Shown here piece after piece: positions 381 through 504 of a DNA stretch of 64,000 nt. The stretch covers positions 38,211-102,210 of IMG/VR virus record IMGVR_UViG_3300032163_000004; one strand, 5' to 3'. Origin of the DNA: a virus. Below the pieces are notes generated by a model. The model was not told the DNA's origin, searched no databases, and worked only from the letters and a program-made list of their open reading frames with translations. The translations under genes and the position numbers were made by a program. Numbering within the stretch: position 1 is the stretch's first letter; every line of letters starts with the position of its first letter.

Positions 381-504
381 GTTAGTCACTGGATAATCAT
401 ACATGCTTTTTAGCTCAATTGGTTGAGCGTTAGTACTTAGAACTAAGGGTTGATGGTTCAACTCCATCAAAAGCAGCCAAAAATTGGTTATCCGACTTAC
501 TAAC
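381..504 (+). ncRNA. Covarying stem-internal-loop RNA element, copy 3, enclosing a tRNA
   Basis: Outer helix GTTAGT (381-386)/ACTAAC (499-504), loop CACT (387-390)/GACTT (494-498), inner helix GGATAA (391-396)/TTATCC (488-493). The apex holds a complete tRNA (404-479) whose first bases TGC are part of the ACATGC conserved in all three copies. The tRNA is thus clamped at the end of the element, which could serve in processing or protection of the precursor (inference). Confidence 0.7.
404..479 (+). tRNA. tRNA, unusual anticodon loop (UUA by position; UAG possible)
   Basis: A full 76-base cloverleaf with encoded CCA: acceptor TGCTTTT/AAAAGCA, D stem GCTC/GAGC, anticodon stem TTAGT/ACTAA, T stem GATGG/CCATC with loop TTCAACT, discriminator G. 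The anticodon loop is ACTTAGA, giving C33 and anticodon UUA, which would read the stop codon UAA. Shifting one base gives CTTAGAA, a normal-looking UAG (Leu) loop, but the stem then fails and there is no long variable arm as tRNA-Leu needs. The tRNA call is secure; its identity is not. Confidence 0.8.

What the first reader, a model, noticed from the sequence alone, without database searches (positions are those of the whole stretch)
381..504. A tRNA clamped inside the third element, with an odd anticodon loop
The tRNA (404-479) is complete and has encoded CCA, but its anticodon loop is ACTTAGA: C33, G37 and, by position, anticodon UUA, which would read UAA. UAA is used as the normal stop codon across the window, so a suppressor role would be conditional. 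The alternative UAG reading breaks the stem and lacks a Leu variable arm. A decoy, regulator or tRNA-like RNA is possible.
Basis: partly seen in the sequence, partly recalled or inferred. Interest (0 to 1): 0.72.

Follow-up and report, generated by a model that had tools for sequence, protein, structure and literature searches.

The report
Phage Y RNA with tRNA mimic
The odd "stop-codon tRNA" is most likely not a translation tRNA but the tRNA-shaped head of a small regulatory RNA (a Y RNA), one of five in a row next to the virus's gene for the RNA-binding ring protein Ro60, and relatives carry the same stem with the tRNA shape attached in two different ways.

Summary
In detail: 404-479 is a perfect cloverleaf with encoded GCCA and a non-decoding loop (ACUUAGA: C33, G37, "UUA"). 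The suppressor reading is unlikely. The "clamp" is an RNA domain (P1, loop YAC/ACUU, P2, UACAUG) present five times in tandem; two copies lie upstream of the window. The array starts about 0.3 kb behind a gene whose homologues have the Ro60/Rsr fold: the PDB profile search returns TROVE, RO60 and RSR, and Foldseek's top 13 hits are all Ro60/TROVE/Rsr. In 13 related uncultured viral records the same domain lies within 2 kb of the Ro60 gene, on its strand, with strong covariation, and is absent from controls. So these are Y RNAs, the Ro60-binding RNAs known in bacteria and phages, some of which mimic tRNA. Copy B has the T-arm-first, closed-acceptor order of the YrlA family. Copies A and 3, and 11 relatives, instead hold a normal-order cloverleaf joined through its acceptor end; elbow arms are conserved, anticodon loops are not, and about half replace CCA with a hairpin. 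The likely role is Ro60 binding by the stem, with the tRNA mimic as effector or decoy arm. New variant of a known kind. Binding and function are untested.

The parts
378..507 (+). Y RNA element 3 (fifth of the array): P1 378-386/499-507, internal loop CAC 387-389 / ACUU 495-498, P2 390-399/485-494, UACAUG 400-405, insert = complete normal-order tRNA-like domain
   Evidence: descriptor score 24.8; MFE -40.8 kcal/mol, z -4.6; covariation across 14 elements
404..479 (+). tRNA-like domain with 7-bp acceptor stem and encoded G-CCA
   Evidence: ARAGORN tRNA-Stop(tta); RF00005 57.8 bits
430..446 (+). anticodon arm UUAGU-ACUUAGA-ACUAA: C33, G37, UUA by position
   Evidence: sequence; comparison with relatives
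296..370 (+). Y RNA element 2: same clamp, small insert (GCCU..AGGCUCCA), no tRNA
   Evidence: R1 model 40.2 bits, E 3.2e-10 (in the training set); descriptor 24.2
215..289 (+). Y RNA element 1: same clamp, small insert, no tRNA
   Evidence: R1 model 38.8 bits, E 9.5e-10 (in the training set); MFE z -5.6
1..24 (+). 3' end of Y RNA element B (L003:2090-2235 = G000:C1:38089-38234; the rest lies upstream of the window); B is T-arm-first, acceptor closed by a loop, D arm, anticodon arm (UGA)
   Evidence: Element A (L003:1950-2074) and the Ro60 gene (L003:162-1634) lie further upstream, outside the window
49..213 (+). 54-aa ORF between elements B and 1, with a possible ribosome-binding site; part of the same gene string
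   Evidence: sequence
605..647 (+). intrinsic terminator-like hairpin (18 bp, then TTTTTG) after the array
   Evidence: L003:2816-2858

Best explanation
The feature is a phage-encoded bacterial-type Y RNA, the last of five in a tandem array behind the phage's own Ro60/Rsr gene. P1, the YAC/ACUU internal loop and P2 form the Ro60-binding stem. The tRNA at 404-479 is the effector domain at its tip, a tRNA mimic joined by its acceptor end and not selected for decoding. By analogy with studied bacterial Y RNAs, Ro60 would hold and stabilise the RNA, and the mimic would dock the complex on tRNA-binding host factors (PNPase in Deinococcus, tRNA-modifying enzymes) or act as a decoy for tRNA-cutting nucleases, changing RNA decay or protecting phage tRNAs in infection. 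Shown: structure and covariation of the stem, conserved linkage to Ro60, fold of the Ro60 homologues, conservation of the tRNA elbow but not of the anticodon. Inferred: transcription as one unit, Ro60 binding, and effector or decoy function.
For: Five clamp copies share fixed positions while P1 and P2 covary. Over 14 elements (5 from the window's record, 9 from relatives) 95.5% of cells pair and 15 of 16 pairs change on both sides, against 54.5% in shuffles and 24-42% when slid. A descriptor finds 19 elements in the Ro60-bearing records, all on the Ro60 strand, 0 on the other strand, 0 in 5 shuffles and 0 in 343 kb of unrelated viral contigs. Hand inspection and model R1 bring the count to 28 elements in 14 records, every one within 1.9 kb of Ro60; R1 over the whole records adds no other place. 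The neighbour is Ro60: profile of 20 homologues against PDB gives TROVE 9l5y/9kop E 1e-8 over residues 23-396, RO60 9nen 5e-8, RSR 2nvo 6.6e-4; Foldseek's best 13 hits are all Ro60/TROVE/Rsr, including Ro60 of Thermus phage phiLo (model pLDDT 83). The YrlA consensus (RF02553) has the same plan: stem, loop with ACUU next to P1', second stem, then T arm, closed acceptor, D arm, which is the order of copy B. Normal-order relatives keep D arm TAGCTCA..GGTAGAGC and T loop TTCRA while anticodon loops vary; eight of thirteen lack CCA, several with a CCCGAAAGGG-like hairpin there.
Against: No Ro60 binding or expression data. Neither the elements nor the protein reach the curated cut-offs of RF02553 or Pfam TROVE. 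Copy 3 has a full 7-bp acceptor and CCA, so release as a tRNA cannot be excluded. Nine of the 14 elements in the covariation count were found by requiring pairing, which inflates the paired percentage. The structure was predicted for a relative of the window phage's protein, not for that protein itself. Some relatives have a different internal loop (ACA/GACAC, GAC/ACUAC, UAU/UCUU).
Confidence: 0.85

Rival explanations
1. Dual-use precursor: the clamp is a Y RNA, but RNase P and 3' nucleases can release the 76-nt tRNA from copies with CCA, giving a working tRNA with an unusual anticodon (UAA reading for copy 3).
For: Copies A and 3 and relatives L053, L056, L070 keep encoded NCCA; most relatives keep U33; the linkers between P2 and the acceptor are unpaired in the fold.
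Against: Copy 3 has C33; copy A has a 5-bp acceptor and anticodon AUC. Homologues carry AAU, AAA and AUC, which to my knowledge bacteria do not use to decode, and eight of thirteen lack CCA. A UAA reader would clash with 29 TAA-terminated ORFs.
Confidence: 0.1
2. Decoy only: the tRNA-like domain is bait for host anticodon nucleases or other tRNA-directed defence, and Ro60 merely stabilises it. (A sub-case of the best explanation as to function; the confidence given is for this being the main role.)
For: Anticodon loops vary between genomes, as expected of bait; these phages carry many tRNA genes worth protecting. PMC7790460 proposes that YrlA's tRNA-like domain may competitively inhibit an anticodon nuclease.
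Against: Copy B keeps the closed-acceptor order of YrlA, and copies 1 and 2 have no tRNA, which bait alone does not explain. No direct test.
Confidence: 0.3
3. Pseudogene: an ordinary phage tRNA that decayed after landing between two inverted repeats.
For: Odd anticodon loop; small-insert copies lie next to it.
Against: All cloverleaf stems are perfect; the same arrangement recurs in 12 records; Y-embedded domains resemble each other (mean 62-69% identity) more than the phage's own tRNAs (53-57%).
Confidence: 0.03
4. Conditional UAA suppressor tRNA used to switch late gene expression.
For: Anticodon UUA by position; CCA encoded; stop-anticodon calls also occur in relatives (L053 4408 tca inside a clamp; L058 cta in its tRNA cluster).
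Against: C33; TAA is the commonest stop in the window; the anticodon is not conserved.
Confidence: 0.03

Closest known systems
Bacterial Y RNA YrlA (Rfam RF02553; Chen et al. 2014, Wang et al. 2018, both known here only through citations and memory)
   Same: Encoded beside Rsr/Ro60; basal stem with an internal loop holding ACUU beside P1'; tRNA-like domain with D and T arms. Copy B and relatives L056 5120, L059 5834, L065 5648, L066 3124 have the same T-arm-first, closed-acceptor order.
   Different: No match above the Rfam threshold. Copies A and 3 and eleven relatives have a normal-order cloverleaf, anticodon arm included, joined by the acceptor end, some with CCA. Copy B also keeps an anticodon arm. 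Five copies in one array.
Phage Ro60/Rsr with putative Y RNAs (Listeria phage CKA15, PMC12282133; Thermus phage phiLo Ro60, PDB 9l5y; jumbo phages, PMC7824862)
   Same: Phage-encoded TROVE/Ro60 protein; in CKA15 abundant small RNAs lie near the gene.
   Different: The protein is very remote from P100-type Ro60 (phrog_850 E 1.6e-9 against 5.5e-170). The RNA anatomy here is worked out and includes complete cloverleafs.
Permuted tRNA genes of algae and archaea
   Same: Copy B is a tRNA sequence in circularly permuted order.
   Different: No sign of splicing to a mature tRNA; the CCA position reads CCC and the break sits on a Ro60-type stem.
tmRNA
   Same: tRNA-like domain inside a larger RNA.
   Different: No tag reading frame; ARAGORN calls tRNA, not tmRNA.

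Membership tests
Bacterial Y RNA (general: Ro60-associated small RNA) | encoded next to a Ro60/Rsr gene | tested here: met
   28 elements in 14 records, all within 1.9 kb of Ro60; R1 finds none elsewhere in whole records
Bacterial Y RNA (general: Ro60-associated small RNA) | terminal stem with conserved internal loop (Ro60-binding site) | tested here: met
   P1-YAC/ACUU-P2, 15 of 16 pairs covary; ACUU position shared with the YrlA consensus
Bacterial Y RNA (general: Ro60-associated small RNA) | physical binding to Ro60 | not testable with these tools
   needs a binding assay or pull-down
YrlA (RF02553) | score above the Rfam gathering threshold (69 bits) | tested here: not met
   no hit to the array at E<=10; not filed as a member of RF02553
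YrlA (RF02553) | T arm, closed acceptor, D arm order | tested here: not met
   element 3 has normal order and an open acceptor end; element B does have this order
Ro60/Rsr protein | TROVE HEAT-repeat ring plus VWA domain fold | tested here: met
   (homologue of the window phage's protein); PF25045 vWA_Ro60 in 5 of 20 homologues
Ro60/Rsr protein | Pfam TROVE PF05731 above cut-off | tested here: not met
   the protein is divergent
Decoding tRNA | cloverleaf with 7-bp acceptor stem and CCA end | tested here: met
Decoding tRNA | U33 and a sense anticodon | tested here: not met
   C33, UUA by position
Decoding tRNA | processing and aminoacylation in vivo | not testable with these tools
   needs RNA from infected cells

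The most novel reading that the evidence does not exclude
Phage Y RNAs use one Ro60-binding stem as a socket that has accepted tRNA modules in two circular permutations (through the acceptor end or through the variable arm), giving an array of Ro60 particles that present different tRNA faces, including stop and normally unused anticodons, to host tRNA-directed enzymes.
Probability: 0.45. Interest if true: 0.75.

Novelty: new variant of a known kind. Interest (0 to 1): 0.6.

Why it matters
It explains a class of puzzling phage "tRNAs" with impossible anticodons: gene finders annotate the mimic inside a Y RNA as a tRNA. It extends Ro60-Y RNA systems to a group of uncultured phages and shows a second way of grafting a tRNA onto a Y RNA, with intermediates (open acceptor with CCA, CCA replaced by a hairpin, closed permuted acceptor). 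That makes the origin of tRNA mimicry in Y RNAs directly testable, and gives a natural set of parts for asking what the tRNA domain does during infection.

Tried and rejected
Rfam scans for the clamp: only tRNA. Exact-pattern scans of IMG/VR for the window's 5' motif: none, then 35 chance matches that look like coding sequence, later reused as a negative control. The search for related loci with the window Ro60 alone or with a structural protein found nothing; an alignment with two distant homologues worked. blastn of the array against phages: none. I considered a self-cleaving ribozyme, bulge-helix-bulge tRNA splicing and a permuted-intron construct; all were dropped once Ro60 was found next door, and because the alternative AGUC/GACU pairing of the internal loop is not kept in copies A and B. 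RtcB RNA ligase, typical of bacterial rsr operons, was not found in 8 records (fragments, so weak). The RF02553 hit in the window's tRNA cluster is a chance reading across two neighbouring tRNA-Thr genes, but its alignment displayed the YrlA consensus. Primary papers on YrlA were not held.

Full report
WHAT WAS CLAIMED AND WHAT IS THERE. ARAGORN tRNA-Stop(tta) and Rfam gives it 57.8 bits as a tRNA. All stems are perfect, G73-CCA is encoded, and the loop is ACUUAGA with C33 and G37. Of 66 non-overlapping ORFs of 100 aa or more, 29 end in TAA. The enclosing element is also real: its 5' motif occurs exactly three times in the window against 0.09 expected, and each element folds 4 to 6 standard deviations better than shuffles.

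OUTSIDE THE WINDOW. The window is G000:C1:38211-102210 of a 102-kb virus record. Fetching the DNA upstream showed two more copies, so the array has five: A (L003:1950-2074), B (2090-2235, ending at window 24), 1 (window 215-289), 2 (296-370) and 3 (378-507), with an 18-bp terminator-like hairpin at 605-647. All share P1 (6-9 bp), internal loop YAC/ACUU, P2 beginning UG and ending CG, and UACAUG after P2. Copies 1 and 2 carry only a small insert. Copy A carries a normal-order cloverleaf with a 5-bp acceptor, anticodon AUC and ACCA (ARAGORN: tRNA-Asp(atc)). Copy B carries a tRNA in permuted order: T arm, acceptor closed by a loop, D arm, anticodon arm with UGA; RNAfold reproduces all four arms.

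THE NEIGHBOURING GENE. The 490-aa protein 0.3 kb upstream of copy A matched only a VWA-bearing phage family called RNA-binding (phrog_850). With two remote phage homologues, one in a 595-kb huge phage, its profile matched TROVE proteins and RO60 in the PDB at 1e-4 to 4e-5, alongside unrelated VWA proteins. The wider alignment of 20 homologues (the window phage's own protein is not a row of it, but an alignment headed by it is the query that found them, at 34-44% identity for the main viral ones) matched TROVE 9l5y/9kop at 1e-8 over residues 23-396, RO60 at 5e-8 and D. radiodurans RSR at 6.6e-4. An AlphaFold2 model of a homologue (L053; pLDDT 83.3, pTM 0.77) has as its 13 best PDB matches only Ro60, TROVE and Rsr entries, including Ro60 of Thermus phage phiLo. 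The Pfam TROVE model does not reach it, which shows divergence.

RELATIVES. In the Ro60-bearing viral loci a descriptor finds 19 clamp elements, all on the Ro60 strand, none on the opposite strand, none in five shuffles and none in 343 kb of unrelated viral contigs. The covariance model R1, built from 14 elements, finds further ones in L060, L062 and L065 and none away from Ro60 in the whole records. It cannot see copies with long inserts, so absence in a record means little. Reading the DNA around ARAGORN hits by eye added variants with altered internal loops. Together: 28 elements in 14 records, 34 to 1824 bases from Ro60: 13 normal-order tRNA-like, 5 permuted, 8 small-insert, 2 other. The hand-assigned ones (marked *) are less certain. 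In the 14-element alignment 95.5% of cells pair and 15 of 16 pairs change on both sides; slid structures reach at most 42%. Nine of these elements were found by requiring pairing, so that percentage is inflated, but the empty controls are not affected.

WHY NOT A DECODING tRNA. Across normal-order copies the D arm (TA-GCTCA..GGTAGAGC) and T loop (TTCRA) are nearly constant, while anticodon loops are unrelated: AUC, UUA, UCA, ACG, AAU (three times), UGU (twice), AAA, and a 6-base loop. Several of these anticodons are, to my knowledge, not used for decoding by bacteria. Eight of thirteen lack CCA, and several have a short GAAA/UUCG-capped hairpin in that place. The Y-embedded domains resemble each other (62-69% mean identity) more than the phage's own tRNAs (53-57%). 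What is kept is the tRNA elbow, not the codon reader.

COMPARISON WITH THE KNOWN. Bacterial Y RNAs bind Rsr with a basal stem and some (YrlA) carry a tRNA-like domain that is modified by tRNA enzymes; in Deinococcus the Y RNA tethers Rsr to PNPase (PMC8394870, PMC7790460, PMC4726728). Phage Ro60 proteins and putative Y RNAs have been noted (PMC12282133, PMC7824862). The Rfam YrlA consensus, displayed, is stem, loop with ACUU beside P1', second stem, T arm, closed acceptor, D arm. Copy B and four relatives follow that order; copies A and 3 and eleven relatives do not. None reaches the Rfam threshold. I therefore file the array as Y RNA-like, Ro60-associated, and element 3 as a new variant rather than a member of RF02553. 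The primary Y RNA papers were not readable here, so a published normal-order case cannot be excluded.

HOW IT PROBABLY WORKS. Shown: an RNA stem family tied to Ro60, with tRNA-like tips whose elbows are conserved. Inferred: Ro60 binds and stabilises the stem; the tip recruits PNPase or tRNA enzymes, or lures tRNA-directed nucleases. PMC7790460 raises the competitive-inhibitor idea for YrlA. The variable anticodon loops and the many tRNA genes of these phages fit a decoy, but no test was possible.

Noticed in passing
window 29259-29335 (-): A 77-nt tRNA called Leu(UAA) without the long variable arm of bacterial tRNA-Leu; its identity may not be leucine.
   Followed up: no
window 27976-30106 (-): Cluster of 14 ordinary tRNA genes interrupted by an ORF at 28622-29236 that looks like a homing or Vsr-like nuclease; similar ORFs (MLC.YGC start) at 35522-36244 and 37322-38053.
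   Followed up: no
window 31838-32530 (-) and 62114-62836 (+): GIY-YIG-like endonuclease ORFs (start MIIYK..NKIN.KIYIGQ), probably homing endonucleases.
   Followed up: no
L058 10999-11074; L053 9449-9534: In Ro60-bearing relatives the ordinary tRNA clusters contain tRNAs called with stop anticodons (CUA, UUA); not checked for misfolding.
   Followed up: no
L065 5488-5641 and L066 3260-3382: Clamp elements whose large inserts are neither a clear normal-order nor a clear permuted tRNA; possibly a third kind of cargo.
   Followed up: partly
window 49-213 (+): 54-aa ORF with a possible ribosome-binding site inside the Y RNA array, between elements B and 1.
   Followed up: no
window 60337-63551 (+): Two radical-SAM-like ORFs and glycosyltransferase-like ORFs among the late genes.
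   Followed up: no
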